Assembly: GCF_019973735.1 (NCBI RefSeq)
Contig: NZ_AP024463.1
Location: 1,302,001-1,366,000, forward strand
Source: Arachnia rubra
GTDB lineage: Bacteria; Actinomycetota; Actinomycetes; Propionibacteriales; Propionibacteriaceae
Reading direction: 5' to 3'
DNA length: 64,000 bases
This document shows, piece by piece, positions 1,866-52,444 of the stretch (positions are counted from its first letter, which is position 1; each line of letters starts with the position of its first letter). A model generated the notes under the pieces. The model saw only the letters and a list, made by a program, of their open reading frames with translations, was not told where the DNA came from and made no database searches. A program made the position numbers and the translations under genes.

Positions 1866-4727
1866 GTGCGGAAGCTGAAGCCGGTACGCGACGGCGGCGG
1901 AGCCCGTTGCTGATCACTGTGCTGATCCTCGGGGTCCTGGCGCTGCTGGTGGTGCTGGCCGCCCACCTCTACACCAACTATCTGTGGTTCAGGAGCGTCT
2001 CGGCGACGACAGTCTTCACCACACAGCTGGCGGCTCGGGTGGGGCTTTTCCTGGGTTTCGGGCTGTTGCTGGGCGGCGGTTTCTTTGGGTCGCTGATACT
2101 GGCGTATCGCCTGCGTCCCCCCCGTCCGGCGCACGAACCTGGATTCCGAGCTGCTGCTGCAGCTGCGTGACAATCTGGACCGGCGTTCCCGGACACTCAT
2201 ATTGCTTCCGGCCGTGGTGCTGGGCCTGATCGGCGGTGGCGTGGCTGCCAGCCAGGTTCAGACCTTCCTCGCTTGGACCCGCGCCACGGATTTCGGGAAG
2301 GGGGACGCCGTCTTCGGGATCGACGCCTCCTTCTACGTTTTCCAGCTACCCTGGTGGCGGTTCGTGCTGGCCTATCTGAACTTCATGGTGGTGGCCTGCC
2401 TGGTCGGTTCCCTGCTGGTGCACTTCCTGACCGGCTCCATGAACGCCGCGGCGTTCCGCAAGACCGGCAACCTGCCGTCAGCGGGCAAGGCCGCCCAGCG
2501 ACAGGTTTCCGTCCTGCTCGGGCTGGGGCTGTTGCTGTACGGGGTGAGCTCTTTCCTGGACCGCTATGGCTACCTGACCAGCCAGAACAGTCTTTTCACA
2601 GGCGTCGACTACACCGATGCCACCTCCCGGATCCCGGCCAGCCTCATCGTCGCCGCGATAGCGGGAATCTGCGCGCTGCTGTGTTTCTACAATGCATGGC
2701 GGGTGAAGTGGAGTGTGCCCGGTATCGCCCTCGGCCTGCTGGTCGTCTCTGCGATGATCCTCACCGCGGTCTACCCGTGGGGGATCCGCTACTTCGTGGT
2801 CAAACCCAACGAGCCCGACCTGGAACGGCCCTGGATCGCGAACAACATCGAGGCGACCCGTGGCGCGTTCGGCATCGACTCGCTCCAGATCTCCGACTAT
2901 GAGGCTGTTGACAGCGTCAGCGCCGGGCAGCTGCGTGCTGACGCCGCCGCTCTTCCCGCGATCAGGTTGATGGATCCCTCCGTCATCGGGCCCACCTTCG
3001 AGCAGCTGCAGCAGGTGCGCGGCTACTACCGTTTCCCCTCCACCCTTGACGTGGACCGCTATAGCCTCGAGGGACGTGAGACGGACGCTGTCGTCGCCGC
3101 CCGCGAACTCGACCTGAACGCCGTTGAGGCGGGCAACACCTGGAACAACATGCACACGGTCTACACGCATGGCTACGGTCTGGTGGCGGCCTATGGGAAC
3201 CGGCGTGAGTCGAATGGGGAGCCCAACTACTTCTCAGGTGGTATCCCGACCGAGGGATTGATCCAGCAGGAACAGCCCCGCATCTATTTCGGTGAGGAAT
3301 CCAAGCACTGGGTTATCGCTGGCGCTCCTGAGGGAGCCGAGCCGGTTGAGCTCGATACCCCCGGCGGGGGCCAGGAACACACCGAGACGAAGTACACCTA
3401 CCAGGGCAGTGGCGGCGTGCCCATCGGGGACTTCCTGAACAAGACGGCCTTCGCTGTCCGCTTTGGCGACATCAATCTGCTGCTCTCTGAGCGGGTGAAC
3501 TCCAACTCACGGCTGCTGTTCAACCGGGTGCCCGCCGACCGGGTCAAGGAGGTGGCGCCCTTCCTGACGGTCGATTCCGACTCCTACCCGACCGTGGTCA
3601 ACGGGCGTATCGTCTGGGTCATCGACGCCTACACCACCACCGCGGAATACCCGAACTCCACCCGGGCCGACTGGCCTCAGGCCACCAAGGACACCCGCAC
3701 CACCTCTGAGCGAGCCACCGCTGGCGACCTGGTCAACTATGTCCGCAACTCGGTGAAGGCGACGGTGGATGCCTACGACGGCACCGTCACGCTGTATGGC
3801 TGGGATGAGTCTGATCCCATCCTCCAGACTTGGTCGAAGGTCTATCCAGGGCTCATCACCCCGAAGTCCGAGATCAGCCCTGAGCTCATGTCCCACCTGC
3901 GTTACCCGCAGGACCTGTTCAAGGTCCAGCGCCAGATGCTTGGGCTGTATCACACGACGAACCCCTACACCTTCTTCCAGCAGTCGGACATCTGGGAGGT
4001 TCCCTCCGATCCCGTCAACGGTGGGGAGAGCGGGACCAAGGAGCCGCCGTATTTCCTAACCATCAAATGGCCGGGGGAGGAGCAGGCGCATTACTCCAAC
4101 ACCACCGTCTTCGTCCCCAGGGGGCGTGAGAACCTCTCGGTCTACATGGCAGTGAATGCCGACGCCACCAGCCCGAACTATGGCCAGCTGCGCGCACTCA
4201 AGCTGTCAGATGCCAAGCAGATTCCCGGGCCAGGACAGACCTTCAACGCGATCTCGACGAATGAGGCCGTGGCGGAGCGGCTGCTTCCCTACAACCGGCA
4301 GGGCAATGCCAAGGCGATCTATGGGAACCTCCTCACACTGCCGGTGGGTGGGGGTCTGATGTACGTGCAGCCGATCTACAGCGCCACCAGCGGCGGCTAT
4401 CCTGCGCTGCGGTTCGTCGTGGTGCGCTTTGGTGAGCACGTCGGGATCGGGGACACCCTGAAAGCGGCGCTGGACCAAGTCTTCAAGGGAGACGCGGGCG
4501 CCGAGACCGGCGAGAAGCCCGTCGAACAGAATCCCGAGGGGCAGCAGAAACCACCGGCTTCCGAAGGTGACGCCAAAGAGCAGGCGAAGGCGCTCCTCAA
4601 GGAGAGCATGGATCTTTTCGCCGCCGCCGACGAGGCTTTGAAATCCGGTGACCTGGCCACCTATCAGCAGAGGGTCAACGAGGCAAAGGCAAAGGCGGAG
4701 CAGGCCCTCGCGCTGTTTGACCAATAA
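1862..4727 (+). CDS. UPF0182 family membrane protein, reading frame broken at a C7 run
   Basis: Large integral membrane protein of the UPF0182 (COG1615) family, about 954 aa once the frame is restored, which is a normal family length. The N-terminal part (1862-2116) encodes two transmembrane helices and the characteristic YTNYLWFRSV motif. The remainder, read one frame over from about 2121, holds further helices (FYVFQLPWWRF), a long extracytoplasmic domain, and an acidic Ala/Glu-rich C-terminus (about 4560-4720). The frame changes at the seven-C run 2117-2123; removing one C joins AYRLRPP to VRRTNLDSELL and yields a continuous family-like protein. The start ATG overlaps the previous stop. 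Function is unknown in the literature I know; conservation beside the Lon-like protease suggests an envelope role (inference). Sequencing error is the likely cause of the break. Confidence 0.85.
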
Positions 4728-4747
4728 GGATAAAGAGGCTTTCTCTA

Positions 4748-4780
4748 GGCGGGGAGCGCGCGGTTTGACATGCTCCCGCC
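4748..4780. terminator. possible bidirectional terminator between convergent genes
   Basis: Arms 4748-4757 and 4772-4780 pair as GGCGGG(G)AGC with GCTCCCGCC, with one bulged G and a 14-nt loop. The hairpin lies between the convergent ends of the UPF0182 gene and the M16 peptidase gene. There is no clear U-tract, so the assignment is moderate. Confidence 0.45.
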
Positions 4781-4835
4781 CCTGATGCGCCCGCCGCACG
4801 TCCGGTGGGTCTTCCTCGCAGCCAGGCCAGCTGGC

Positions 4836-6176
4836 TCAGGCATCGTCTTCATCGGTGGGGCCGCCTGCGAGAACCTGTGCATCGATCCCGGCGGCCTGGA
4901 GCCGCGGCGCCAGCAGCGCTGCCGGGCCCCCGATTGCGATGGTGGTGTTATCGGGACGGATATGGGTGCGCCAGGCGGTGTTGACCTGTCCGGTCGTGGT
5001 GGTGCTCAGCGCCGCCTGGTAGCGGTTTACGAAACCCGTGTCGAGCCCGGCTGCGGTCAGGGCGGCTGTCTGAGCCGTGATGTCGGCTGCGGTCTCGTAG
5101 TGCAGCGGCGACACCTGCACTAGGTAGTGTGCAGCGTCCAGGATCTCGTTGTCGGAGAAGGGGGTCTCCAGTGCGAGTGCGTCCAGCAGGCGGGCCGTGG
5201 CATCGGCTGCTGACTCGTTGCTCAGAGCGGTTTCGATGCTGAGAGCACCTCCCCCACGGCGGGGTGAGACGCCTCCCGAGATGCCATAGGTGTAGCCGAG
5301 GCGTTCGCGGAGCTCCAGGTTCAGCCGGCTGGCGAAGGCCCCGCACATGGCGTGACCGCCAAGTTTCAGGGCTGTCCAGTCTGAGTGCTCCCGTCCGGGA
5401 GTCGGGATGAAGGCCTGCACCACGGTCTGTGCCGCCTGGGGCAGGTCAACCAGCACGATCCCGGGCGGCCCGGGAACCCCCTGCGGCGCTGGGGCGGGGG
5501 AACGGCTGCCGGACCAGACCTCGAAAGGCGCCGTCAGGTCGTCCTCGCGGTTCTCAGCCAGGTCTCCCGCGATGATCAGGGTCGCTCCTTCGGGAACCCA
5601 GGTGCGGGCATGCCAATCCTGGACGGCCTTCCTGGTGATGGCCGCCAGGGTCTCGGGCGTGCCCGCTATGGGGCGTCCCTCCCGCTGGTTCATGCCGAAC
5701 AGTGAGGCTCTCAGAGAGTCCCGGGTCATGGCGCTGGGAGAGGCTCGCCGGGTCTTCCAGGCCGCGATCTGGTTCTCGATGTGGTGTGCCACGTCGGTTT
5801 CGTCGAAGGCCGGTTCCCTGATGACGGACGCGAAAAGCTCCAGCACCTGCGGCAGGCGGCGTGCTGGGGCGCTCAGCCCCAGCCGCGTGTGTCCCCAAGC
5901 CGCATGCCCGCTCAGCGCAGCCCCCTGGAGCTCCAGGCGTTCCACGATGTCAGGAATCGTCACCGTGGCCTCGTCGCAGGCGTGTAGACCCACGTTCGCG
6001 ATGCCCTCCAGGTTCCGTGGTTCAGCTTCGAGGGGCGTGGGCAACACCAGCTCCACCGAGGCCAGGGCCTGTCCGGGCACCTGGATGAAAGCCAGCTCCA
6101 GACCTGAGCTGAGTGTGCTCTTCTCGGGTGTGGGGAAGAGCCAGGGCTGGGGCTCGGCTATGGCGGGACGTCTCAC
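4836..6176 (-). CDS. M16 peptidase-like protein, subunit lacking the zinc motif
   Basis: A 446-aa protein with the two-lobed layout of the M16 (pitrilysin / processing peptidase) family. The position of the zinc motif HxxEH reads HACDEA, so it should not bind catalytic zinc by itself. The C-terminal half keeps the substrate-binding Arg...Tyr element (RERLGYTYGISGG). The next gene upstream has the opposite pattern, and the two overlap by 4 nt (ATGA at 6173-6176). This suggests a heterodimer in which one chain supplies zinc and the other supplies Arg/Tyr, as known for mitochondrial processing peptidase and some bacterial M16B pairs (inference). No signal peptide is apparent, so a cytoplasmic location is likely. 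Confidence 0.85.
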   Translation of the reverse strand: MRRPAIAEPQPWLFPTPEKSTLSSGLELAFIQVPGQALASVELVLPTPLEAEPRNLEGIANVGLHACDEATVTIPDIVERLELQGAALSGHAAWGHTRLGLSAPARRLPQVLELFASVIREPAFDETDVAHHIENQIAAWKTRRASPSAMTRDSLRASLFGMNQREGRPIAGTPETLAAITRKAVQDWHARTWVPEGATLIIAGDLAENREDDLTAPFEVWSGSRSPAPAPQGVPGPPGIVLVDLPQAAQTVVQAFIPTPGREHSDWTALKLGGHAMCGAFASRLNLELRERLGYTYGISGGVSPRRGGGALSIETALSNESAADATARLLDALALETPFSDNEILDAAHYLVQVSPLHYETAADITAQTAALTAAGLDTGFVNRYQAALSTTTTGQVNTAWRTHIRPDNTTIAIGGPAALLAPRLQAAGIDAQVLAGGPTDEDDA

Positions 6177-7441
6177 GAGGCATCCTTCGGGAGATAGTGC
6201 AGCTGGCTCAAGGATGGCTGGTTGGCTAGGACGCGCGACACATCGTCGGGGGTGACGGCCGCGAGGTCTGCCAGCCTACGGTTGACCAGCGCAGGGTCGC
6301 CCCAGGTAGCCCAGGCCTCGGCGGCAGCCTCGGCGCGATCTTCGACGGTGGCGAGTTCCGACAGCCAACTGCGCTCATACTGGGCCTTGGCGCGGTCGAG
6401 TTCCTGTTCGGATGGGGAATCCAGGACAGCTAGCTCATGCGCGAAGGCCTCGGCAAGGTCCCTGGTGTCCACCCCATCGGCAGGCCTGGCGCTGAGCGAA
6501 GCGATGGAGGGTGCACGCAGGTGTCCGAGCACCGTCCCATGTACCTCATGCGCGAGACCGCTTTCCCGCACCAGGCGGCGATGGAGTCGGGAGGCGTGGC
6601 CCTCAGACAGGATCGACAGGCCCAGCTCGAGTGCCAGCTGGTCCGGGTCACCCGCGGCCGGGGCCTGCCAGGAGCAGTACAGTAGGGGGTGGGGTACATC
6701 CCCGGTCAGGGTCAGGTCTCCACCGTCAAGGGTGGGAGTGGTGATGGTTTCCCGGGGGGGTGGTGAGGCATTCTCAAGGTCGCTGAAATGCTGTTCGACC
6801 AGGGCGATGGTCTTTTCGGCGTCGATGCCCCCGCAGATCACCAGCTTCGCATGGGAGGGGCGGTACCACGTCGCGTGGAAGGCCGCCACATCGTCCAGGC
6901 CTGCTGCGGCCAGATCCTCCATGGAGCCTATGGGCAGGTGCCCATAGGGGTGGTCAGGCCCAAAGTGCTGCCCCACCAACTCCGCCAGCAGATCCCCGTA
7001 GGGGCGGTTGTCGTAGCGTTGGCGTTTCTCCTGGGTGACCACGTCACGCTGGGCGTCGAGGTTCTCCTGGGTCACCGCGAGACTGCGCAGCCGGTCCGCT
7101 TCCAGCCAGAGCACCAGCTCCAGCGCTCCTATCGGCACGCACTCATGGTAGACGGTGCGGTCAGTGGAGGTGAAAGCGTTGACGTTACCGCCGGCGGCCT
7201 CAATCATGGACATGTGCTCGCCGGAGGCGACCTGGGCTGAGCCCTGGAACATCATGTGCTCGAAGAGATGGGCGAAACCCGTGCGGCCCGGTGTCTCGTC
7301 AACGGAGCCGACCTGGAAGCTGAGATTCACCGCGACGGCTGGGGTCTCGGGGGCTGGGAGCAGCGCCAGCTCCAAGCCATTGGTCAGGCGGTATCTGATG
7401 ACGGTGAAACCGGAGGAGGCTGGAAGTCGTGATTCGGCCAC
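6173..7441 (-). CDS. M16 family zinc peptidase, catalytic subunit
   Basis: A 422-aa metallopeptidase with the inverted zinc motif HLFEH at residues 58-62 followed by MMFQGS, and a downstream glutamate in EAAGGNVNAFTSTDRTVY / LDAQRDVVTQEKRQRYDN that fits the third zinc ligand region. In the C-terminal half the usual Arg...Tyr pair is altered (RESGLAHEV, histidine where tyrosine is expected), complementing the partner encoded immediately downstream. ATG 7439-7441 lies 3 nt after the DUF3040 gene stop, so DUF3040 and both M16 genes form one minus-strand operon. The role is likely processing or clearance of peptides or small proteins; the substrate is unknown. Confidence 0.9.
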   Translation of the reverse strand: MAESRLPASSGFTVIRYRLTNGLELALLPAPETPAVAVNLSFQVGSVDETPGRTGFAHLFEHMMFQGSAQVASGEHMSMIEAAGGNVNAFTSTDRTVYHECVPIGALELVLWLEADRLRSLAVTQENLDAQRDVVTQEKRQRYDNRPYGDLLAELVGQHFGPDHPYGHLPIGSMEDLAAAGLDDVAAFHATWYRPSHAKLVICGGIDAEKTIALVEQHFSDLENASPPPRETITTPTLDGGDLTLTGDVPHPLLYCSWQAPAAGDPDQLALELGLSILSEGHASRLHRRLVRESGLAHEVHGTVLGHLRAPSIASLSARPADGVDTRDLAEAFAHELAVLDSPSEQELDRAKAQYERSWLSELATVEDRAEAAAEAWATWGDPALVNRRLADLAAVTPDDVSRVLANQPSLSQLHYLPKDAS

Positions 7442-7444
7442 GGC

Positions 7445-7834
7445 TCAGAGGTCGCCACCCTGCTGGCGCTTGCGCCAGCGTTCCTCCAGTTTGCTCATGA
7501 AGTCTTCTGCTCCGGATGACGAGGCCTGGCCCGAAGGCTTTGAGGGCCGCTTCGTCTCCTCCTGGCCCTCAATCCGCGACCAGGCGCTGATGCCGACGAT
7601 GGCGGAAACAAGCATCATGACGAAACCCGCGATGGAGATCGCCGGCTGGATCTGCACCCCGATCACCAGCGCGGCGAGACCGGCCACGAAGGCCAGCCCG
7701 GCCAGGGCCGCTCGCCTGCGCTGAACCCGGAACTGGGAGTTCCCCCTCAGGGTGTCCGCGAATTTCGGGTCCTCAGCGAGCAGCGATGCCTCTAACTGTT
7801 CCAGGCGCTTCTGCTCCTGCTCAGACAAAGCCAT
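7445..7834 (-). CDS. DUF3040 domain small membrane protein
   Basis: A 129-aa protein beginning MALSEQEQKRLEQLEASL, the hallmark opening of the actinobacterial DUF3040 family. The charged helix at residues 1-35 is followed by two hydrophobic segments (about 47-63 and 66-85) and a charged Lys/Ser/Pro-rich tail. ATG 7832-7834 is chosen over an in-frame ATG 30 nt further upstream because AGGAGG sits 5 nt before it and the family motif starts there. It leads the operon with the two M16 genes. DUF3040 genes often lie near mraZ and the dcw cluster in actinobacteria, as here. Function unknown. Confidence 0.88.
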   Translation of the reverse strand: MALSEQEQKRLEQLEASLLAEDPKFADTLRGNSQFRVQRRRAALAGLAFVAGLAALVIGVQIQPAISIAGFVMMLVSAIVGISAWSRIEGQEETKRPSKPSGQASSSGAEDFMSKLEERWRKRQQGGDL

Positions 7835-7927
7835 CGTGGCCTCCTGTCGTGTTTCCTTGGGCACCCCGCCCTGAGAGGCCCATTGTAGGTGCCTTGCCAG
7901 ATAGGTGGAAAACCACCTCCGAGGTGC

Positions 7928-11340: not shown

Positions 11341-11341
11341 C

Positions 11342-12313: not shown

Positions 12314-12354
12314 GGGGCTCCTAGGGACTCGCGACGCTTTCTCGACGTGGATGA

Positions 12355-12395: not shown

Positions 12396-12402
12396 GGCCG
12401 AG

Positions 12403-13065: not shown

Positions 13066-14016
13066 ATGAGCACGGACGTGCATGATCCGGTCATGATCGG
13101 CCGGGTCATCGAGCTGCTTTCCCCGGCCCTCGTCGCGCCCGGTGCCGTCTGTGTCGACTGCACCCTTGGGCTCGCCGGACACGCACGCGGCCTTCTAGAG
13201 GCAGCGCCCTCGGCCCGGTTCGTCGGCATCGACCGTGACCCTGATGCCTTGGCTGTCGCGCGAGAAAGGCTTGGGCCCCTCGCGCGGCGGGTGACCCTGG
13301 TCAAGGCCGTCTACGACGAGCTACCCGATGTGCTCGCCGGTCTCGGGATTGGTCAGGTCCAGGCAGTCCTGGCCGACCTTGGGCTCAGCTCCCTCCAGAT
13401 CGACCGCCGGGACCGGGGCTTCGCCTACCGGGTGGACGCCCCCCTCGACATGCGCATGAGCGCCGGTGAGGGGCCCACCGCCGCCGACCTGCTCAACACC
13501 GCTCCCACGACAGAACTCACCCAGATCCTGCGCCGCTACGGCGAGGAGAGGTTCGCGGAACGCATTGCCACCGCGATCGTGCAGGCGCGGGGAAGCGAGC
13601 CCCTCACCTCGTCAGCTCAGCTCGTCGAGATCATCTCCAGCGCTATTCCCGCCGCTGCCAGGCAGGCTCCTGGACACCCTGCGAAACGCACCTTCCAAGC
13701 GCTCCGGATCGCGGTCAACGACGAGCTGGCCGTGCTGGGACGCTTCCTGCCCGCCGCCACGGGAGCCCTGGCAGTCGGTGGCCGGATCGCGGTCCTGGCC
13801 TATCACTCCCTGGAGGACCGGATGGTGAAGCAGCATTTCGCGGCCCTGGTTGCCGACGGGGCGCCGCGGGACATGCCGGTCGTCCCCGAACACCTCCAAC
13901 CCAGGTTCAAGCTCCTGACGAGGGGGGCGGAACGGCCCGCTGAACAGGAAACCCAGTCCAACCCTCGTGCGGCATCCGCCAGGCTGCGCGCCGCAACCCG
14001 AATCAAGGAGGCATAG
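13066..14016 (+). CDS. rsmH: 16S rRNA (cytosine(1402)-N(4))-methyltransferase RsmH
   Basis: A 316-aa AdoMet-dependent methyltransferase (formerly MraW) that modifies C1402 in the ribosomal P-site. It opens [13 protein letters not shown], has the SAM-binding segment [15 protein letters not shown], the acidic [11 protein letters not shown], and later [25 protein letters not shown] and [13 protein letters not shown], all RsmH hallmarks. ATG 13066 follows a GGAGGGAAGCGGAGG ribosome binding region and is preferred over the longer frame from 12934, which runs through the structured leader. Its stop overlaps the GTG start of ftsL. Confidence 0.96.
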
Positions 14017-14544
14017 TGAGCGCCCTCGCCGCTGAAGCCGAGCACCACGACCGGGAACCGTCACGTCCCCGGCTGCGACTCGTCCCCCCCGGTCAAGGCA
14101 GGTGTCTCCACCTTCGGGTTTCTGGTGATTCTCGCGGTCCTGGTGGTGGTCGGGATGGGGGCCGTCATGGTGGTCACCACCCAGGTTGGTGCGCAGTCCC
14201 GTGACCTGACGAACCTCCGTAAGGAGGCCAACCAGCTCTCCTACAAGGCAGCTGCGCTCCGCACCGAGCTCCAGGGAGTCTCCAGCAGCGGGTCCCTGGC
14301 CCTGCGTGCCTCGGAACTCGGGATGGTGCCGAACCCGTTCCCGGCGTTCGTGGATCTGTCAAACGGCAGTGTCCTCGGAGAGCCCACACCGGTCAGCGGA
14401 AACGAGGCTCCTTATCTGACAGGGCGGTCCCCGTCCCGCCAGCCCGCGGCCACGGCAACCCCGGACCCCACCCCGCCGGCAGCCCAGCAGACGCAAGAGT
14501 CGGCAGGGCAGGCGACTGCGCAGACTGAGATGGGTGAACAGTGA
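14016..14544 (+). CDS. ftsL: FtsL-like septum protein, reading frame broken at a C7 run
   Basis: Small bitopic division protein, about 175 aa after frame repair. GTG 14016 overlaps the rsmH stop and follows AAGGAGG. The first 24 codons encode a charged cytoplasmic tail (MSALAAEAEHHDREPSRPRL). At the seven-C run 14084-14090 the frame must shift by one base to continue as VKAGVSTFGFLVILAVLVVV, which supplies the transmembrane helix. A short coiled-coil (about 14205-14290, NLRKEANQLSYKAAALRTEL) and a Pro/Ala/Thr-rich tail follow. FtsL forms the FtsQLB complex that activates FtsWI. It lies between rsmH and ftsI as usual and overlaps the ftsI GTG. The ORF from 14125 alone would lack the N-terminus and part of the membrane helix. 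Confidence 0.8.
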
Positions 14545-16428
14545 GTCCGCGTCCACCGGGCCGCTCCCGGAGCGGGCCGGCAACCCGCAGGGCGTCGCAT
14601 GGCCGGCGTTACCGCCGCGTGTGGCGGATGCCCCTGGGCCGTTCCGGCATGCGCATCCGCGCGTTCATGATGGCCCTGCTGCTGCTGGTGGTCGTCTGCG
14701 TTGGGCGTGCCGTCCAGCTGCAAGCCCTGGAGGCCCAGACATTCGCCGCGCAGGCGGCGGAGAAGATGCAGAACACGCGCGAGCTGCTGCCCGACCGGGG
14801 GATGATCGCCGACCGCAACGGAGTGGTACTCGCTGCCACCGAGCCGGCGATGCACATCACAGCCGACCCAGAGATGGTGCAGTCCAATGGTGCAGACAAG
14901 CGCTACGCGGTCAGTGCCAAGAAGCAGGAGGAGGCGGAAGCGGCGCCGCAGGCCGTCGCCAAGATCCTCGCCACGCATCTGGGGGGCAGCGAGTCGAAGT
15001 ACCTTGAGATCCTGCTGACCAAGGATTCCAAGCATGCGGAGATCGCCAGGCATGTCCCGGCAGCCACCTGGACCGAGATCGAGAACGACATGCGCAAGGG
15101 AATCGACGGCGACGGCAAGCGTCGCTGGTATGGGTTGTTTGCCCAGCCCGACCCCATGCGCACCTACCCGAACCGGGCGCTGGCGAGCAACGTCGTCGGT
15201 TTCGTCAACGGCGAGGGAAAGGGCTCCGCGGGGCTTGAGGGCCTGCTCGACTCGCAGCTGGCGGGCACCCCTGGCCAGGAAGTCTATGAGCACTCCACCT
15301 ACGGGCGTATCCCGCTGGGGACTAATGTTCTCACCCCCCCCGGTGAACGGCATCAACTACTCCCTGACGCTGGATGCGGACCTGCAGTGGTTCTCGGAGC
15401 AGGCGCTGGCCGATGGCATTGCGAAGGCCGGGGCGAAGACGGGATCCATCCTCGTGATGAACCCGAACAACGGCGAGATCCTCGCCCTGGCGACGGCGCC
15501 GTCCTTCGACTCTGCTAACCCTGGGGCCGCTGATCCAGGGAACCTGGGGAACCGCACCGTGACGGAGGCCTTCGAACCGGGATCCACCGAGAAAGTCCTG
15601 ACCATGGCCGCTCTCGCCGACTCGGGCCTGGTCACGCCAGACACAAAAGTCGACATCCCGGCCCGGATCGCTTCCGGGGGTGGGTACGTCACCGACTCAT
15701 TCGAGCACGGGCAGATCAAGCTGACCGCACGTGGCGTGATGGCGCAGTCCTCCAACATCGGCACCATCAAACTGACCCGCCAGATGGACAGGGAGAAGCT
15801 GCACGAGTACCTCACGTCCTTCGGTCTCGGTTCGGTCCCGGGGGTGGGACTGCCCGCCGAGAGCGCCGGGTCAGTGCCCGCAGCCGACATGGCCGACTAT
15901 ACGCGCGACCAGATCTCCTTTGGGCAGGGACTCTCGGTCACGACCGTCCAGATGGGGGCCGCGCTGTCAGCCGCTGTGAACGGAGGCACCTATCACCAGC
16001 CGCAGATCATCCGCTCGGCGACGAATCCCGACGGGACCCCGGTGTCACTGGCCGCTCCATCCTCACACCGCGTGATCTCCGAGGAGGCCTCTGGCATGGT
16101 GGTGAACATGATGGAGGCTGTCATCACGAGCGCCAGCTCAGAGCGGGCCATCCCCGGCTACCGTACGGCTGGCAAGTCGGGTACTGCCCAGCGGTATGAC
16201 CCCAGCTGCAAGTGCTACAACGGCTACACCTCATCCTTCGTGGGTGTCGCCCCGGCGGACAAGCCGCAACTGCTCGTCTATGTTGTGCTCGACCAGCCCA
16301 CCAACGGCAACCTCGGCAGCCAGCTGGCCCTTCCCGTGGTCAACAACGTGCTCCAGATGGCGCTGCCCAGGTATAACGTGGTGCCCTCCAGCACACCGGC
16401 CCCGAAAGAACCTCTGACATGGGAGTGA
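14541..16428 (+). CDS. ftsI: peptidoglycan transpeptidase FtsI (PBP3), frame broken at a C8 run
   Basis: Septal class B penicillin-binding protein, about 628 aa after repair. Layout: basic N-terminal tail, one transmembrane helix (about 36-56), a PBP dimerisation domain, then the transpeptidase domain. Catalytic motifs: SxxK as EPGSTEKVL (Ser about 348, codon at 15583), SxN as AQSSNIG, and KSGT as TAGKSGTAQ near 16171. The frame changes at the eight-C run 15334-15341; deleting one C links NVLTPP to VNGINYSLTLDADLQ, exactly where class B PBPs are continuous. GTG 14541 overlaps the ftsL stop and the 3' end overlaps murE. No PASTA domain is present. It acts with FtsW at the septum. Confidence 0.88.
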
Positions 16429-38186: not shown

Positions 38187-39636
38187 ATGTCCTCCTCCTC
38201 CACTGAGGCTTCGGCCGTAGCGGTCGACGATTTCGGCACCCCGGAAGCCTTCATGGCTGCCGTTGACGCCACAATCAAGTATTTCAACGACGGTGACATC
38301 GTCTCCGGCACCGTCGTGAAAGTCGACCGGGACGAAGTTCTCCTTGACATCGGTTACAAGACCGAAGGCGTCATTCCGTCCAAGGAACTCTCCATCAAAC
38401 ACGATGTCGACCCATTCGACGTGGTTCAAGTCGGCGATGAGATCGAGGCCCTGGTCCAGCAGAAGGAAGACAAGGAGGGGCGTCTCATCCTCTCCAAGAA
38501 GCGTGCCCAGTACGAGCGGGCTTGGGGCACGATCGAGAAGGTCAAGGAAGAGGACGGCGTCGTCTCCGGTTCTGTCATCGAGGTCGTCAAGGGCGGCCTG
38601 ATCGTTGACATCGGCCTGCGCGGCTTCCTCCCCGCATCCCTGGTGGAGATGCGGCGTGTCCGTGACCTCCAGCCTTATGTCGGCATGGAGCTTGAGGCCA
38701 AGATCATCGAACTCGACAAGAACCGCAACAATGTGGTTCTGTCCCGTCGCGCCTGGCTGGAGCAGACCCAGTCCGAGGTGCGTCAGACATTCCTCAACCA
38801 GCTGCAGAAGGGCCAGATCCGCAAGGGCGTCGTCTCCTCCATCGTCAATTTCGGCGCCTTCGTCGATCTCGGCGGTGTCGACGGCCTGGTGCACGTCTCC
38901 GAGCTGAGTTGGAAGCACATCGATCATCCGAACGAGGTCGTCGAGGTCGGTACCCCCGGTCACCGTCGAGGTGCTGGAGGTGGACATGGACCGCGAGCGC
39001 GTCTCCCTGTCGCTGAAGGCCACCCAGGAGGATCCGTGGCAGACCTTCGCGCGGCTGCACCAAATCGGCCAGATCGTGCCCGGCAAGGTCACGAAGCTGG
39101 TCCCATTCGGTGCCTTCGTCCGCGTTGGCGACGGCATCGAGGGCCTGGTACACGTCTCTGAGCTCGCTGAGCGGCACGTCGAGATCCCGGAACAGGTCGT
39201 CTCCGTCGGCGACGATGTGATGGTCAAGGTCATCGACATCGACCTGGAACGCCGGCGCGTGTCCCTGTCGCTGAAGCAGGCGAACGAGGGCGTCGACGTT
39301 GCTGCCGATGAGTTCGACGCCTCCCTCTACGGCATGGCCGACAGCTATGACGAGCAGGGCAACTACATCTACCCCGAGGGCTTCGATCCGGAGACCAACG
39401 AGTGGAAGCCCGGATATGAGGAGCAGCAGGCCGCCTGGGAGCAGCAGTACGCCGAGGCCCAGGCCCGCTGGGAGGCCCACAAGCGCCAGGTGGCCGAGGC
39501 CGCCGAGGCCGAGCGCCAGGCAGCCACGGCCGCCGGTACCGGTTACGCCTCCACCTCCGATGAGCCCGTCGAGGGATCGCTTGCATCCGATGAGGCCCTG
39601 CAGGCTCTCCGCGAGAAGCTGACCGGTAGCAACTGA
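38187..39636 (+). CDS. rpsA: 30S ribosomal protein S1, reading frame broken at a C5 run
   Basis: About 482 aa after repair, normal for actinobacteria. Four S1 (OB-fold) RNA-binding repeats: about residues 33-105 (DGDIVSGTVVKVDRDEVLLDIG), 118-188 (EDGVVSGSVIEVVKGGLIVDIG), 205-275 (GQIRKGVVSSIVNFGAFVDLG) and 290-360 (GQIVPGKVTKLVPFGAFVRVG). A Glu/Gln/Ala-rich tail follows. In the third repeat the frame is broken at the C5 run 38953-38957; removing one C links VVEVGTP to VTVEVLEVDMDRERVSLSLK, the canonical S1 sequence. S1 binds mRNA on the 30S subunit and is essential in most bacteria that need it, so a true null is unlikely. Confidence 0.9.
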
Positions 39637-42926: not shown

Positions 42927-42938
42927 GATGCTCTCTCC

Positions 42939-44054: not shown

Positions 44055-44107
44055 GAGGCCCCTTTCCTGACGGCGTGCGACGTTGCTGGGTGGTGCCCAC
44101 CCGTAGC

Positions 44108-44262
44108 CCCCTCTGTCGCTGCTGCCTGAGATCGTTTAATCCTTCGGCGGACCCTGCCGGGTCTCTCTCCAGAGTGTGCAAGTCGTCGCGGTCCTGGGGC
44201 CTGAGAGTTTCCGGGGCGGTTGCTCCTTCGGCACCGACTGGGTCGGTTCTCCCGCTACAGGA
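44108..44262 (-). promoter_or_regulatory. tandem glycine riboswitch upstream of gcvT
   Basis: Read on the minus strand, two glycine aptamers are recognisable. The first (about 44180-44262) has GCGGGAGAACC, the core GCCGAAGGAGCAACC and AAACTCTCAGG ending in GGACCGC. The second (about 44108-44176) has GGAGAGAGACC, GCCGAAGGATTAAAC and ATCTCAGGCA. A short linker joins them. This is the classic gcvT glycine riboswitch, which in most actinobacteria and firmicutes turns on glycine cleavage when glycine binds. The distance to gcvT is about 53 nt; I see no clear terminator hairpin, so control of translation is possible. Confidence 0.93.
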
Positions 44263-44265
44263 GAA

Positions 44266-44271
44266 AGCATA
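44266..44271 (-). promoter_or_regulatory. -10 element for the gcv riboswitch transcript
   Basis: TATGCT on the minus strand lies 7 nt before the first aptamer, placing the start at about 44259. The -35 is weak (CTCCTG at 44289-44294). Confidence 0.4.
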
Positions 44272-44344
44272 GCGAGAAGCGTCCCGGCCAGGAGGTAGCC
44301 TGGAGAAAACACAGACCTAGAACTTCAACGCGGAAGGAGCGGGC

Positions 44345-44635
44345 ATGGCTGTGAACCTCATCGCAAGGTTCGAGTGCCGGGACGGGGCGCGCGACGTGGT
44401 GGCGGGCCTCATCGGCAGCTATGCGGAACACGTGAATGCTTCGCCGGGGACGGTGCGTTTCGCGGTGCATACGGAGCGGGACAACCCGAACCAGTTCGTC
44501 ATCGTCGAGTGCTACGCGGATGAGGCAGCCTTCGAGGCCCACCTCGCCGACCCCGAGAACGCCACGTTCAACGAGAAACTCGGGCCGTTGATCGTTGGGG
44601 ACGCCTCTGAGCTGACCTTCCTGGAGGTTCCGTAA
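44345..44635 (+). CDS. antibiotic biosynthesis monooxygenase (ABM) domain protein
   Basis: A 96-aa protein with a single ferredoxin-like ABM fold, beginning MAVNLIARFECRDGARDVV and containing SPGTVRFAVHTERDNPNQFVIVECYADEAAFEAHL, the typical ABM pattern of quinol monooxygenase-like proteins. ATG 44345 has GGAAGGAG 8 nt upstream. It is divergent from the gcv operon and precedes coaE by 12 nt. Members oxidise quinol-type or other small aromatics or detoxify electrophiles; the substrate here is unknown. Confidence 0.82.
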   Translation: MAVNLIARFECRDGARDVVAGLIGSYAEHVNASPGTVRFAVHTERDNPNQFVIVECYADEAAFEAHLADPENATFNEKLGPLIVGDASELTFLEVP

Positions 44636-44647
44636 TACCCTGTACCC
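44612..44647 (+). promoter_or_regulatory. promoter predicting a leaderless coaE mRNA
   Basis: CTGACC (44612-44617), 18-nt spacer, TACCCT (44636-44641), 6 nt, then GTG 44648. It overlaps the end of the ABM gene. Confidence 0.55.
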
Positions 44648-45256
44648 GTGCGCATCGGATTGACGGGTGGGATCGCATCGGGCAAATCCACGGTTGCCCG
44701 GGAACTGGAGCGGCTGGGCGCCTTCATCATCGACGCCGACGTCCTCGCCCGTGAGGTGGTGGCGCCGGGCACCGAGGGCTTCCAGAAGGTCCTCGACCGT
44801 TTCGGCGGCTCTGTGCTGGCGGCGGATGGCAGCCTGGACCGGCGCGCACTCGGCCGCGTTGTTTTCGCCGATCCCAAGGCGCTCGCCGACCTGAATGCCA
44901 TCATCCATCCCCGCGTGCGTGCCCGGGCCGTCGAGCTGGAGAAGATAGCGCCCGAGGGGGCGCTCGTGGTGCATGTCATCCCGCTGCTGGTGGAGACCGG
45001 GCAGCAGGAGAATTTCGATGTGGTCGTGGTGGTGGACACCACCGTGGAGGAGCAGCTCCGCCGCCTATCACGCCGCGACGGCATGACGTCCACCGAGGCA
45101 AGGCAGCGTGTCGCTGCCCAGGCTGACCGCTGGGAACGCCTGGCCGCGGCCACACACGTGATCGACAGCTCCGGGCCTGTCGCCGAGACCATGAGGCAGG
45201 TCGCTGCGCTGTGGCGGGACATCTGCCGCATGGCCGACGAGACCACGAAGGCCTGA
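44648..45256 (+). CDS. coaE: dephospho-CoA kinase
   Basis: A 202-aa P-loop kinase catalysing the last step of coenzyme A synthesis, phosphorylation of dephospho-CoA. The P-loop GGIASGKST (residues 7-15) and FIIDADVLAREVV, LNAIIHPRVRARA and VIPLLVETGQQENFD are the expected motifs. GTG 44648 directly follows a -10 element, suggesting a leaderless mRNA. It is convergent with uvrB, 2 nt apart. coaE and uvrB are neighbours in many actinobacteria, often near rpsA as here. Confidence 0.95.
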   Translation: MRIGLTGGIASGKSTVARELERLGAFIIDADVLAREVVAPGTEGFQKVLDRFGGSVLAADGSLDRRALGRVVFADPKALADLNAIIHPRVRARAVELEKIAPEGALVVHVIPLLVETGQQENFDVVVVVDTTVEEQLRRLSRRDGMTSTEARQRVAAQADRWERLAAATHVIDSSGPVAETMRQVAALWRDICRMADETTKA

Positions 45257-45258
45257 GC

Positions 45259-47304
45259 CTATCTGTTGGCCTCGATCATCTGCCGTAGCTCCTTCTTCAG
45301 ATCCGCTATCTCGTCACGGTGGCGGGCCGCCAGCTCGAATTGGAGGTCGGCGGCAGCCTGGTGCATCTGCGCGGTGAGGTCATCGATCAGCTTCGCCAGT
45401 TCCTGCTCGGGAAGCTCCCTGACCTTCAGGCCCCTCTCACGGCGGCCCTCGAGCAGGACCTCGGTGTCGGCGTCCTCCCGGTTCAGCATGTCTGTGATGT
45501 CGGCGATCCTCTTCCGCAGCGGCTGAGGATCGATGCCGTGTTCGGTGTTGTAGGCCAGCTGCCGCGAACGTCTCCGGTTGGTCTCCCCGATGGCGGCTTC
45601 CATCGACGGCGTGACCGTGTCCGCGTACATGTGCACCTGCCCGGCGACATTGCGTGCCGCCCGGCCGATGGTCTGGATGAGGGAACGCTCCGAGCGGAGG
45701 AAACCCTCCTTGTCGGCATCGAGGATGGCCACGAGGGAAACCTCCGGCAGGTCCAGGCCCTCCCGGAGCAGGTTGATGCCCACCAGGACGTCGTATTCAC
45801 CGAGCCGGAGCTCCCGCAACAGCTCGACCCGCTTCAGGGTGTCGATGTCGGAGTGCAGATACCGGGTCCGGATGCCCGCTGCCATCAGGTAGTCGGTGAG
45901 ATCCTCGGCCATCTTCTTCGTCAGGGTGGTCACCAGGACCCGTTCATTGCGTTCCGCACGGGTCCGGATCTCCCCGATCAGATCGTCGATCTGTCCCTTC
46001 GTCGGTTTGAGGACGATCTCCGGATCCACCAGTCCGGTGGGCCGGATGATCTGCTCCACGAAGCCCCTGCTGCGCTCCAGTTCGTAGGGACCGGGGGTGG
46101 CTGAGAGATAAACGGTCTGCCCGATGCGCTCGCAGAACTCGTCGAACTTCAAAGGCCGGTTGTCCAGGGCACTCGGCAGGCGGAAGCCGTGTTCCACGAG
46201 AGTACGTTTCCGGGAGGCGTCGCCCTCATACATGGCCCCGATCTGCGGAATGGTGACGTGGGACTCGTCCACCACGAGGAGGAAGTCCTCGGGGAAATAG
46301 TCCAGCAAGCAGGCAGGCGCTGATCCGGCCTCGCGGCCGTCGATGTGGCGGGAATAGTTTTCAATCCCGGAGCAGGTGCCGATCTGGCGCATCATCTCGA
46401 TGTCGTAGCTGGTGCGCATCCGGAGCCGCTGCTCCTCCAAAAGCTTGCCCTGGGCCTCCAGCTCCTGCAGGCGGGTCGTCAGCTCAGCCTCGATGCCGGC
46501 GATGGCGCGTTCCATGCGTTCGGGGCCCGCGGAGTAATGGGTGGCCGGGAAGACGTAGATCTCATCCTCATCACGCAGCACCTCGCCGGTCAGCGGCACG
46601 AGGGTGGAGATGCGCTCGATCTCGTCACCGAAGAACTCGACGCGCACGGCATTCTCCTCGTACATGGGGAAGATCTCCAGCACGTCGCCGCGTACCCGGA
46701 AATTACCGCGCTCCGAGGTGAGGTCATTCCGGTTGTATTGGATGTCCACCAGATGCCGTAGCAGAGCAGTACGTTCGTATTCCTCGCCGACGCGCAGGGT
46801 CAGGCGCTGATCAAGGTATTCCTGCGGCGTGCCCAGGCCGTAGATAGCCGACACTGTGGCGACCACGACGCAGTCGCGCCTCGTCAACAGCGAGCTCGTC
46901 GCAGAGTGCCTGAGCCGCTCCACCTCCTCATTCAGCGAGGAGTCCTTCTCGATATAGGTGTCCGTCTGCGGGACATAGGCCTCGGGCTGGTAGTAGTCGT
47001 AGTAGGAGACGAAATACTCGATGGCATTGTCAGGGAAGAACTGACGCAGCTCATTGGCGAACTGCGCGGCCAGGGTCTTGTTCGGCTGCATCACCAGGAT
47101 GGGACGTTGCAGCCGCTCCGCCAGCCAGGCCACTGTCGCGGTCTTCCCCGTCCCGGTCGCGCCGAGGAGCACCACATCCTGCTCGCCCGAGCGGATGCGG
47201 CGCTCCAATTCCGCGATGGCGGCTGGCTGGTCCCCGGAGGGGGAAAAATCAGCCGCCACGTGAAGCGGCGCCACCTGGCGACGGACCTCGTCGATCGGTC
47301 TCAT
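45259..47304 (-). CDS. uvrB: excinuclease ABC subunit UvrB
   Basis: A 681-aa damage-recognition helicase-like protein of nucleotide excision repair. Walker A GATGTGKT (residues 48-55), the beta-hairpin region [25 protein letters not shown], helicase motif SATPG, the second RecA domain [17 protein letters not shown] and QTIGRAARN, and a C-terminal UVR motif for UvrC contact. ATG 47302-47304 begins [10 protein letters not shown], as in other actinobacteria. UvrA is encoded 1.6 kb away on the opposite strand. Confidence 0.97.
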
Positions 47305-47318
47305 GAGCCGATTATGCG

Positions 47319-48023
47319 TCAGGAATCACTTGGGGGAGCCAAGCAGTACGTGCGGGCAGGCGTGTCGTAGGAGAGAGGCAATTCATCGCTTTCGCAGGAC
47401 GCATTTGCCTGATCGACACGCTTTGTCACCTTGACGTCTGCCGATCCGCACTCCGTCACAGCGAGAGGTGCAGTTTGGTTGCTGGTGTCGACTTTGTAAC
47501 ACACGCCTTGGTGCAGATTCCTTATGAGACAGGCCACCTTCTGGGTTTTGGTGCTCCGACCTGACCTGTTTGTTACCTCGTAGCTCACCATGTCGGAGGG
47601 GCAGGCGTCAGAGTTGTCTACGGTCTTGGCCACCTCGAAGGAGAACTGCGTCTTGTCTGAGCAATCCACCTCTTTGTGATCGGCTTTGTCTGCCGTGCCT
47701 GAGACAACGATGCATTTGCCTACCTGGAGGGCCTGGCTAGATTGAAACTGGCTCCACAAACCCCAGGCACCCAGTCCAAGGAACACGGCGGCCACGATGA
47801 CCTTGATGACCGCGGCTGCATTATTATTTTTCTTCTTCGGCTGGTCGAAGCCTCCCTGCGCCATGTACGGCTGCTGTGGCTGGTTGGGATCGTATGGCTG
47901 GCCGGGATTGTAGGGCTGTTGTGCCTGGTTGGGGTCGTAGGGCTGGCCGGGGGTGTAAGGCTGCTGGCTTTGCGGATTATACGCCTGGTTGGGATCGTAT
48001 GGCTGATTCGGAGGTTGCGTCAT
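47319..48023 (-). CDS. membrane protein with Pro/Tyr/Gln repeats (LppU-like)
   Basis: A 234-aa protein. The first 60 residues are low complexity built on the repeated unit QPYDPNQ / QPYNPGQ, cytoplasmic by topology. After KKKNNN comes a single transmembrane helix (about 71-91), then an extracytoplasmic domain with six regularly spaced cysteines (VGKCIVV, EVDCSDK, DACPSD, VACLIR, GVCYKV, VTECGS) resembling LppU/SCO3897-type actinobacterial domains. ATG 48021-48023 has AAAGGA upstream. Function unknown; the repeat-rich tail may bind wall-synthesis partners (inference). Low-complexity DNA repeats underlie positions 47855-48010. Confidence 0.75.
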
Positions 48024-48163
48024 CTTTGTCCTTTACCGGGGAGAATCCTCATGGTGGGGCGGCCCCTACCCAGCAGGCCGCGGATCTTATCGATGACGTA
48101 TCGAACGGGCTTGCCACAAGCTTTGTCAAGTCAGCGTAGGCCTTAGTTATTAGTGGTTGGCCT

Positions 48164-48859
48164 CTATCCCTGTCCGGGCTCTACGGGCGAGGACTGCAGT
48201 TCTTCCAGCTCGATGCCGCGGGCCAGCCAGGTGAGCAGCGCTGGCGCGGGACCCACTAAGCGGCGTGGGGGATTGGGGCCGTCGATGTGCAGCACCTGCT
48301 CGCGGGTGGTCTCGATGTCCAGGGAACCGGTTCCCCGGGCAAGGTAGGTGGCCTCGAAAGCCAGCAGGGGGGCGGCCACCTCGTCTGTGACCTCAAGGCT
48401 GGAGGCGTCTGGTTCCAGGTCGAAGCTATGCAGCACCAGTTCGCGTAGCCGTACGAGGGGAAGGTCGCGGATTGCGACCTTAAGGCCAGGGCGCAACTGG
48501 ACATGACCCTCCCGGCCAGCCAGCTGGGTCAGGAGAGGATCCAGTTCGCCTGCGCTCGTGTCGAGTTCGATCTGGAGATGGAGGCCGTCGGTGATGGCGA
48601 GAAGTTCGCAGTCACGTCCCAGCCCCGAGTCGTAATGGCTGCCGGACGAACCTGCCAGCAGTTCCCGGCACACCTGTGCGAGGCTGCGGGCACCTTTGAT
48701 CAGGTGCGCCGCAACATGGCTTCGGGTCCATCCCTGCAGCCGGGTGGGAGCGGCCCAGGCCTCGGGGGAATAGGAGATGGTACGTCCCAGGAGTGCGTGG
48801 GTCTGGTCCCGCACTGCCTGCAGGATGGAGTCGAAATGCTTGCCAGGGGCGCTCGGCAT
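48164..48859 (-). CDS. maleylpyruvate isomerase family (DinB/MDMPI) mycothiol-dependent type protein
   Basis: A 231-aa protein of the DinB-like four-helix superfamily with an MDMPI N-terminal domain: residues about 39-55 read [20 protein letters not shown], containing the metal-ligand histidine region, followed by a second His-containing helix ([18 protein letters not shown]). Actinobacterial members use mycothiol or zinc, but most are of unknown substrate. The 140-nt region to the LppU-like gene (48024-48163) shows no clear signal. It is divergent from uvrA. Confidence 0.78.
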
Positions 48860-48914
48860 GCCGTCAAACCTATCAAAGGTGAATTGTCAGCGTGGCGGCA
48901 TACCATGTGTGACC

Positions 48915-51770
48915 GTGACTGCTCGACCTGCCCAACGCGGAATCCTCGTACGCGGTGCCCGTGTTCACAACCTCAAGAACGTCTCCCTGGACCTGCCTAG
49001 GGACTCCCTGATCGTGTTCACTGGGCTGAGTGGATCGGGTAAGTCGTCGCTGGCCTTCGACACGATCTTCGCGGAGGGGCAGCGGCGCTACGTCGAGTCC
49101 CTGTCGGCCTATGCCAGGCAGTTCCTGGGGCAGATGGACAAACCGGACTGCGACTTCATCGAGGGGCTTTCGCCCGCGGTGTCCATCGACCAGAAATCTA
49201 CCTCCCGGAATCCCCGCTCGACGGTCGGCACCATTACGGAGGTCTACGACTACCTGCGGCTGCTGTTCGCCCGCATCGGCATCCCGCACTGCCCGGAATG
49301 CGGGGTCGCCATCGGGAAGCAGAGCCCGCAGCAGATCGTCGACCGCCTGATGGGCATGGCCGAGGGCACACGCTTCCAGGTGCTCGCCCCCATCGTGCGT
49401 GGCCGCAAGGGTGAGTTCCAGGAGACCTTCCGGCAGCTCGTCGCCGACGGCTACGCCCGGGTGCGTGTCGACGGGAGGCTGTATTCGCTCACCGAGCCTC
49501 CGTCGCTCGACAAGAAACGTAAGCACGACGTGGACGTGGTGGTTGACAGGGTGGTCGTGAAGGCCTCCGCCAAACAGCGGATCACCGAGTCGGTGGAGGC
49601 CGCCCTGCAGCTGGCCCATGGCGTGGTTGGCGTGGAGTTCGTGGATCTTGAGGCGGATGATCCTGAGCGCGAGAAGCGTTTCTCGGAGAAACTCGGCTGC
49701 CCCAACGAGCATGATGTGGCCATCGATGAGCTGGAGCCCAGGCAGTTCTCGTTCAACGGGCCTTGGGGGGCCTGCTCTGAGTGTTCCGGGCTCGGCACCA
49801 TGCTGGAGCCCGATCCTGAGCTCATCATCCCCGACGAGACCCTCAGCCTCGCTGACGGCGCCATGGCTCCCTGGAACACCCCCCATCTGAAGGGGCATTT
49901 CGAGCACGTCCTGGAGGCCCTGTCTGCTGAGTATGGCTTCGACATGCGCACCCCGTGGCAGGATTTGGCGGCCAAGCACCGGAAGGTGCTGCTGCACGGC
50001 GTCCCTGGGGCCGTGGTGGTGAGTTTCCGCAACCGGTTCGGGCGGACCAGGTCCTTCTCCCAGAAGTACGAGGGCATCCTGCCGTTCGTGCGCCGCCGCT
50101 ACGCTGAGGCCGAGACCGACTCGGCGCGTGATCGCTGGGGCGGGTACATGCGGGAGATCGACTGCCATTCCTGTGGCGGTACCCGGCTGCGGCCCGAGAC
50201 CCTGGGCGTCACCGTGGCGGGCAAGAACATCGCGGAGGTGGCTGACCTGTCCATCGGGGAGGCCTTCGAGTACCTGGATGCCCTGTCGCTGAACGAGCGG
50301 GAGGTGCGGATCGCGGAACGGGTGGTCAAGGAGATCCGGGAGCGGCTACGTTTCCTGCTGGACGTGGGGCTGGACTACCTGACGTTGTCCCGCGCCGCCG
50401 GGTCGCTGTCGGGTGGTGAGGCGCAGCGCATCCGCCTGGCGACGCAGATCGGCTCGGGACTGGTCGGGGTGCTTTATGTCCTGGACGAGCCCAGCATCGG
50501 CCTGCACCAGCGTGACAACCTGCGGCTGATCGAAACCCTTGAGCGGCTGCGTGACCTGGGGAACACGCTGATCGTCGTGGAGCACGACGAGGACACCGTC
50601 CGCGCTGCCGACTGGGTGGTGGACATCGGCCCGGGCGCCGGGGAATACGGCGGCGAGGTCGTGGTTTCGGGGCCCGTCGAAGATCTGCTGGCCAGTGAGG
50701 AGTCGATGACGGGGCGCTACCTGTCGGGGCAGCTCGCCATCGACGTGCCCACACTCAGGCGTCCCGGGAACGGCAACGCGGTCACTGTCGTCGGTGCCTC
50801 GGAGAACAACCTGCGGGACGTGGACGTCACATTCCCGCTGGGGCGGTTCATCGCGGTGACGGGGGTGTCCGGGTCCGGCAAGTCGTCGCTGGTCAACTCG
50901 ATCCTCTACACTGCGGCGGCGAAACAGATCTACGGGGCGAAGGCCGTTCCCGGGAAGCACCGGAGGTTGAGGGGCCTGGAGCATCTGGACAAGGTGATCC
51001 AGGTGGACCAGTCGCCCATCGGACGTACCCCGCGATCCAATCCGGCCACCTACACCGGGGTTTTCGACAAGATCCGAGGACTATTTGCCACCACGCCGGA
51101 GGCGAAGGTTCGTGGCTATCTGCCCGGCCGGTTCTCCTTCAACGTCAAGGGCGGCCGCTGCGAGAACTGCTCTGGTGACGGCACCATCAAGATCGAGATG
51201 AACTTTCTTCCCGATGTCTACGTGCCCTGCGAGGTATGCCACGGGGCGCGCTACAACCGCGAAACCCTTGAGGTGCACTACAAGGGCAAGTCCATCTCCG
51301 AGGTGCTGGAGATGTCCATCACCGAGGGGGTGCGGTTCTTCGAATCAATCCCCGCGATAGCCCGGCATCTGAGGACCCTCGAGGAAGTCGGCCTCGGATA
51401 CGTGCGTCTCGGACAACCCGCCACCACTCTCTCCGGTGGTGAGGCCCAGCGTGTGAAGCTCGCCGCGGAGCTGCAGAAACGCTCCACGGGCCGCACCCTC
51501 TATGTGCTTGACGAGCCCACCACGGGCCTGCACTTCGAGGACATCCGCAAGCTGCTGGCCGTGCTGCATCGTCTCGTGGATGCGGGAAACACCGTGGTGG
51601 TAATCGAGCACAACCTCGACGTCATCAAGGCTGCCGACTGGATCATCGACATGGGGCCGGGCGGCGGTTCCCGGGGTGGCGAGGTGGTGGCCACCGGCAC
51701 ACCCGAGGAGATCGCCCGGGCAGAGGGGTCGGCGACGGGTGAGTTCCTGGCTCCGCTGCTGGCGCTTTGA
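48915..51770 (+). CDS. uvrA: excinuclease ABC subunit UvrA
   Basis: A 951-aa ATPase that detects DNA damage and loads UvrB. Two ABC modules: Walker [16 protein letters not shown] near the N-terminus and [13 protein letters not shown] in the second half; signature [13 protein letters not shown] and [13 protein letters not shown]. Zinc-finger cysteines include [19 protein letters not shown] and [11 protein letters not shown] 48915 follows TACCAT (48901-48906) by 8 nt, suggesting a nearly leaderless mRNA; GTG 48909 is the alternative. The longer frame from 48777 overlaps the divergent MDMPI gene and is not used. Confidence 0.96.
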
Positions 51771-51780
51771 GACGCCTGGT

Positions 51781-52444
51781 TCAGCTGGGCGAGCCGGGGC
51801 TCACCAGACCGTTCTCGTAGGCGGCGATCACCAGCTGGGCGCGGTCGCGGGCCTGCAGTCTGCTCAGTAGCGCCGAGATGTGGGTTTTGCAGGTGGCGTG
51901 GCTGATGTGCAGTTCCTGTTCTATCTGCTCGTTCGACAACCCGCGGGCCACGAGCCGCAGGATCTGGGTCTGCCGTGGTGTCAGGCCTGCCACGTTCCCG
52001 CGCGGGGTCTCGGTAGGAAGCCAGCGTTCCACGAGGGTGGTCACTGCCGACGGGGCCAGCAGCGACTGGCCCGCCGCGACCGTGCGGACCGCATTGATGA
52101 GTGCATCCGGGGTGGCGTCCTTCAACAGGAAACCGGAGGCACCCGCCCGCAGTGCTCCGAAGACATACTCGTCCAGGCCGAACATCGTCAGCACCAGCAC
52201 CCGGGTTTCGGCCAGGCGCGGGTCACGGGCGATGGAACGGGTCGCAGCGATCCCGTCCAGCTGCGGCATGCGGATGTCCATCAGCACGACATCAGGTGCC
52301 AGCTCGCGGGTGACCGACACGGCCTCGACACCGGTGGCAGCCTCCGCGACGACCCGGATGCCGGGCTGGTGGTCTAGAAGGTGCACCAGGGACTTGGCGC
52401 AGCAGCTGCTGGTCGTCGGCGATCACGACGCGGATCTCAGGCAT
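51781..52444 (-). CDS. NarL/LuxR-type response regulator, reading frame broken near the start
   Basis: About 220 aa after repair: a receiver domain (MPEIRVVIADDQQLLR, phospho-acceptor about Asp56 in VVLMDIRMPQ) and a LuxR-type helix-turn-helix (about residues 150-215, LTPRQTQILRLVARGLSNEQIEQELHIS). The ATG at 52442-52444 gives the conserved N-terminus, but the frame must shift after LLR. Removing one base at 52396-52397 (a CC on the coding strand) yields LLRKSLVHLLDHQPG, which fits receivers of this class. Without the shift the shorter frame from 52386 would lack the acidic pocket. The partner kinase overlaps it by 8 nt. Confidence 0.85.

What the first reader, a model, noticed from the sequence alone, without database searches (positions are those of the whole stretch)
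2117..52397. Five conserved genes broken by one surplus C each: systematic base-call error or +1 recoding
UPF0182 (2117-2123), ftsL (14084-14090), ftsI (15334-15341), rpsA (38953-38957) and a NarL-type response regulator (52396-52397) each need one base removed to restore a family-like protein. In every case the surplus base is a C on the coding strand, and four of five lie in runs of five to eight C. In ftsL, ftsI and rpsA the run is followed by GGT, so the shifted frame reads CCG GTN. ftsL, ftsI and rpsA are normally essential, so real null alleles are implausible. Sequencing or polishing error is the simplest reading. However, CCC-N is a known +1 slippery context when tRNA-Pro G37 is undermethylated, so real recoding cannot be excluded from sequence alone.
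Basis: partly seen in the sequence, partly recalled or inferred. Interest (0 to 1): 0.75.

Follow-up and report, generated by a model that had tools for sequence, protein, structure and literature searches.

The report
Homopolymer length errors in one assembly
Five conserved genes look broken because this genome assembly counts one base too many in each; the same genes are whole in other sequences of the species or its close relatives, so this is almost certainly a sequencing artefact and not a new way of reading genes.

Summary
The five frame breaks (UPF0182, ftsL, ftsI, rpsA, NarL-like regulator) are in the sequence; each gene is one base longer than in close relatives. Three sit on C runs of 7-8, rpsA on C5; in the NarL-like gene the extra base aligns as an A, so "always a C" fails. 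Continuous proteins 99-100% identical to the window's pieces exist on other contigs for S1, FtsI and UPF0182, so the surplus is private to this assembly. It is also genome-wide: in 1.2 Mb sampled I found 13 further probable breaks, 4 of them in coding-strand G runs, where tRNA-Pro slippage cannot apply; 17 of all 18 are surplus. Of classifiable G/C runs of 7 or more, 8 of 15 are shifted here against 1 of 18 in two relatives. tRNA-Pro(GGG) equals that of relatives with intact ftsI, and trmD is open. Size and GC resemble Arachnia rubra DSM 100122, reported from PacBio Sequel reads. Verdict: homopolymer over-count; recoding not supported. No reads were seen.

The parts
1862..4727 (+). UPF0182 membrane protein gene, split between two frames; break at the C7 run 2117-2123
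   Evidence: tblastn pieces against G026 and G012 orthologues; PF03699; continuous 954-aa proteins P0241 and P0242, 100% and 99% identical over the 841-aa window piece
14016..14544 (+). ftsL gene, split; break at the C7 run 14084-14090
   Evidence: alignment to G026 and G012 DNA; NCBIfam FtsL_Actino over its cut-off
14541..16428 (+). ftsI (PBP/transpeptidase) gene, split; break at the C8 run 15334-15341
   Evidence: continuous 599-aa P0121 identical to the first piece up to the break and 362/363 to the second
38187..39636 (+). rpsA (30S protein S1) gene, split; break at 38953-38959 (C5 then GG)
   Evidence: continuous 482-aa P0002 matches 256/257 and 220/221 residues of the two pieces
51781..52444 (-).

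Best explanation
The five breaks are errors of the assembly, mostly homopolymer over-counts (one base too many in long G/C runs), not features of the organism. Shown: the alleles are continuous on other contigs of what is by identity the same species (three genes) and in same-genus genomes (all five); the same kind of break recurs elsewhere in this genome, in G as well as C runs, and its rate rises steeply with run length. Inferred: that reads or consensus calling caused it (no reads were available), and that the genome is an Arachnia rubra assembly made from long reads without short-read polishing.
For: Continuous S1, FtsI and UPF0182 proteins 99-100% identical to the window pieces on other contigs. 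Orthologues in G012 and/or G026 lack the extra base at all five sites. ftsI and rpsA have no second close copy in this genome. 13 more probable breaks in 1.2 Mb sampled, 12 surplus and 1 missing base: 7 in coding-C runs, 4 in coding-G runs (gyrB/parE-family, AlgH-like, ABC-3 permease, type 2 IPP isomerase), 1 near a T run, 1 deletion. Shifted fraction of classifiable G/C runs of 7 or more: 8/15 here against 1/18 in G026 and G012, Fisher p 0.004. Size and GC near the A. rubra DSM 100122 assembly, for which the paper names PacBio Sequel reads and no others.
Against: No reads were seen. rpsA (C5) and the NarL-like gene (AA) are not long runs. The source names of P0002, P0121 and P0241 are not shown, so it is not known how independent they are; P0236 and P0273, other near-identical entries, carry frame breaks of their own elsewhere. 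The sampled rate (18 breaks in 1.2 Mb, some 50 genome-wide by simple scaling) exceeds the 26 pseudogenes of the A. rubra paper, and the lengths differ by 14 bp, so G000 may be another assembly. C8 runs outnumber G8 runs on the assembly's + strand (10 against 2, p 0.039), a skew I cannot explain. Five breaks in 50 kb is dense against none found by tblastn in the rest of the well-covered part of block A.
Confidence: 0.93

Rival explanations
1. The strain really carries the extra bases and makes full-length proteins by +1 ribosomal frameshifting of tRNA-Pro at CCC-N.
For: Four sites have a 0-frame CCC followed by C or G and then a GTN codon in the new frame; CCC-C is a known slippery sequence, at up to 1% in E. 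coli next to the start codon, and removal of m1G37 raises it 8-fold (passages of PMC4519876).
Against: Same-species alleles of three genes lack the surplus. tRNA-Pro(GGG) identical over the whole gene to that of three relatives with open ftsI; GGG and UGG isoacceptors have 7-base anticodon loops; trmD open with no stop. The coding-G sites, the T-run site and the NarL-like site (AA) cannot use it. An efficiency near 1% would hardly sustain S1 or FtsI (inference).
Confidence: 0.02
2. Transcriptional slippage on long homopolymers restores the frame in a fraction of mRNAs.
For: Would act on C, G and T runs alike; homopolymers of eight or more are used for programmed slippage (passage of PMC3711429).
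Against: The same paper gives runs of adenines or thymines as the characteristic motifs. rpsA has C5 and the NarL-like gene AA only. Same-species alleles of three genes are continuous.
Confidence: 0.02
3. True recent indel mutations in the sequenced culture (mutator or relaxed selection).
For: Indels at long G/C runs are the typical slipped-strand product (recalled); the surplus is private to this genome among those compared.
Against: Hits genes normally essential (rpsA, ftsI, ftsL, pheT; essentiality recalled), with no second close copy of ftsI or rpsA; 17 of 18 are insertions.
Confidence: 0.03

Closest known systems
Homopolymer-length errors of long-read-only bacterial assemblies
   Same: Single-base indels on homopolymers that fragment conserved genes; dependence on run length; private to one assembly (abstract starts in the listing; passages of PMC12007338)
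   Different: Here nearly all are insertions (17 of 18), while in the passages seen of PMC12007338 homopolymers go mainly with deletions
Programmed +1 frameshifting (prfB type)
   Same: A conserved protein needs a +1 shift at a defined codon
   Different: The shift site is not conserved in relatives or, for three genes, in the same species; many unrelated genes and different bases
tRNA-Pro frameshift suppressors and TrmD deficiency
   Same: CCC-N sites
   Different: No altered tRNA-Pro(GGG), trmD open, coding-G sites also affected

Membership tests
Homopolymer assembly error | Intact allele in other sequences of the same species | tested here: met
   S1, FtsI, UPF0182; for ftsL and the NarL-like gene only same-genus genomes were compared
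Homopolymer assembly error | Rate rises with run length and ignores coding strand | tested here: met
   8/15 at 7 or more against 106/5353 at 4-6; both coding-C and coding-G (6 and 2 of the 8)
Homopolymer assembly error | Reads disagree with the consensus at the run | not testable with these tools
   no reads held
Programmed +1 frameshifting | Shift site conserved in orthologues | tested here: not met
Programmed +1 frameshifting | Stimulatory elements at the site | not tested
   not examined
tRNA-Pro +1 suppressor or m1G37 loss | Altered tRNA-Pro (extra loop base) or missing TrmD | tested here: not met
   of the CGG isoacceptor only its presence was seen, its loop was not displayed
Phase-variable tract | Tract length varies among isolates in surface or restriction genes | tested here: inconclusive
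   the genes are mostly housekeeping (recalled); the three same-species alleles seen are continuous at these sites; population reads not available

The most novel reading that the evidence does not exclude
This strain carries real one-base surpluses in many housekeeping genes and tolerates them by a general, base-independent frame-restoring process (ribosomal or transcriptional slippage on long G/C runs), acquired after it split from the rest of its species.
Probability: 0.02. Interest if true: 0.9.

Novelty: not a real feature. Interest (0 to 1): 0.07.

Why it matters
It warns that a single-contig genome scored 100% complete can still show rpsA, ftsI, ftsL and pheT as broken, which would mislead essential-gene, pseudogene and recoding surveys. 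If the recoding reading were true it would be a genome-wide relaxation of the triplet frame in a bacterium, but the evidence is against it.

Tried and rejected
Recoding by altered tRNA-Pro or missing TrmD: rejected. Local clustering as a biological island: the five lie in 50 kb and tblastn found no other intragenic break in the covered rest of block A, but pheT and further breaks in blocks B and C show a wider process. GGT context as a motif: 3 of 4 C-run sites in the window, 0 of 7 coding-C sites outside (contexts). Most frame junctions from tblastn were false: 14 of 19 in block A and 9 of 18 in block B were rRNA or tRNA stretches, upstream non-coding DNA, start regions or gene ends, judged by eye on the alignments. 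In the alignment five of nine relatives (L086, L087, L089, L090, L092, all minus-strand hits) did not line up at the sites and were set aside, and L088 and L091 lined up at ftsI but not cleanly at ftsL; so ftsL rests on G012 and G026. The histidine-kinase site of block C is weak: its two pieces hit different families, so it may be two genes. The upstream piece of the IPP isomerase had no Pfam hit and was recognised only by PDB sequence matches. Block C was examined only at runs of 7 or more, without relatives. The methylation-motif comparison hardly separates own from its relatives. Literature: four searches; none listed a paper on frame breaks in this genome, but the terms were not aimed at that alone. 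One search looked for tRNA genes in one stretch and found none; it was of no use.

Full report
What was checked. The window is bases 1,302,001-1,366,000 of a 3,316,972-bp single-contig genome of a Propionibacteriaceae member (best rpsA match: Propionibacteriaceae bacterium P6A17, 88%). Its closest same-genus genomes by FtsI are G012, G026 and G016 (86-87% over the conserved part, open frames of 615-629 codons).

Comparison with relatives. DNA alignments show one base more in own than in G012 and/or G026 at each of the five sites. At ftsL and ftsI the relatives encode Pro-Pro-Val, at UPF0182 Pro-Pro-Val, at rpsA Thr-Pro-Val. In the NarL-like gene the extra base aligns as an A. In rpsA a G is as likely as a C. 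So the surplus is real relative to kin, but it is not always a C.

Same-species alleles. Protein searches with the window's own pieces found continuous proteins: S1 P0002 (482 aa, cluster of 47 member sequences, longest contig 13,681 bp), matching 256/257 and 220/221 residues of the two pieces, the latter mismatch being the start-codon residue; FtsI P0121 (599 aa, 40 members), identical up to the break and 362/363 after it, with a second entry, P0236, also continuous across the break although its own end runs out of frame; UPF0182 P0241 (954 aa, 36 members) and P0242, 100% and 99% over the 841-aa piece and, by eye, continuous across the break. At this identity they are the same species (inference). 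Source names are not shown for these entries.

Genome sample. I sampled three 400-kb blocks of own (36% of the genome), with G026 and G012 as references for block A and G026 for block B. Block A: 184 loci, 222 kb covered, 19 candidate junctions, 5 intragenic, all five the given ones. The codon test with Pfam adds pheT in the part of block A without counterpart in the fetched stretches: one Pfam domain is split 1-109 / 112-214 between two frames at a C7 run. Block B: 214 loci, 222 kb, 18 candidates, 9 intragenic by inspection: coding C7, C8, C7, C8; coding G8 (gyrB/parE family), G8 (AlgH-like), G5 (ABC-3 permease); one near a T run; one missing base. Block C was examined only at runs of 7 or more: an ABC exporter with its membrane domain split 2-153 / 168-271, a type 2 IPP isomerase (coding G7), and a weaker histidine-kinase site. 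In total 18 probable breaks: 11 coding-C (rpsA counted here although ambiguous), 4 coding-G, 1 T, 1 A, 1 deletion.

Run-length test. With a codon-usage frame test, classifiable G/C runs of 7 or more were shifted in 8 of 15 cases (41 runs, 26 unclear), all by one surplus base (6 coding-C, 2 coding-G); runs of length 6, 5 and 4 in 5 of 122, 22 of 1109 and 79 of 4122. In G026 and G012 together runs of 7 or more were shifted in 1 of 18 (50 runs, 32 unclear; the G026 blocks share 20 kb); Fisher p 0.004. The test missed some breaks that tblastn shows: it called ftsL and four of the six long-run sites of block B unclear. Of tblastn junctions, 9 of 37 in own (blocks A and B) sit on a G/C run of 7 or more, and 0 of 27 in the two relatives (read by eye).

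Recoding tests. tRNA-Pro(GGG) is identical to that of G012, G016 and G026, the GGG and UGG genes have 7-base anticodon loops, a CGG gene is present, and trmD is open, 247 codons, no stop. Coding-strand G runs cannot be read by tRNA-Pro slippage.

Which assembly. Arachnia rubra DSM 100122 was reported as 3,316,958 bp, 64.2% GC, one circular contig, from PacBio Sequel subreads at 185x with the SMRT Link microbial assembly, no short reads mentioned, 26 pseudogenes (PMC8638593, part 1 of 2 of the text read). Own is 14 bp longer and 63.9% GC in the sample. Densities of the three published methylation motifs scale to 2924, 1913 and 713 in own, 2214, 2003 and 962 in G026, 2090, 2289 and 655 in G012, against published modified counts of 2690, 2130 and 712; this separates them only weakly. 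An A. rubra assembly is likely, not certain.

Conclusion. A surplus that depends on run length, appears in coding C and coding G alike, is absent from same-species alleles and breaks housekeeping genes lacking a second close copy (tested for ftsI and rpsA) is what homopolymer over-counting in a consensus produces. The finding is ordinary and should not be read as recoding.

Noticed in passing
G000:C1 about 1,406,000-1,506,000 (loci L144-L148): A stretch of about 100 kb with almost no counterpart in the stretches fetched from G026 and G012 (2 loci in 100 kb), perhaps a genomic island; the rest of those genomes was not searched.
   Followed up: no
P0273 (contig of 3,410,708 bp): Another near-identical UPF0182 entry (577 aa, 97%) ends, by eye, in residues of another frame, which suggests that a second large assembly of this species has a frame break in the same gene at a different place.
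   Followed up: no
G000 blocks A-C: C8 runs outnumber G8 runs on the assembly's + strand, 10 to 2 (p 0.039), while runs of 6 and 7 show no such excess of C; unexplained strand skew.
   Followed up: partly
G012:C1 near 1,260,800: A gene intact in own (window 55602-56840) is one C shorter and out of frame in G012, with C5 where own has C6.
   Followed up: no
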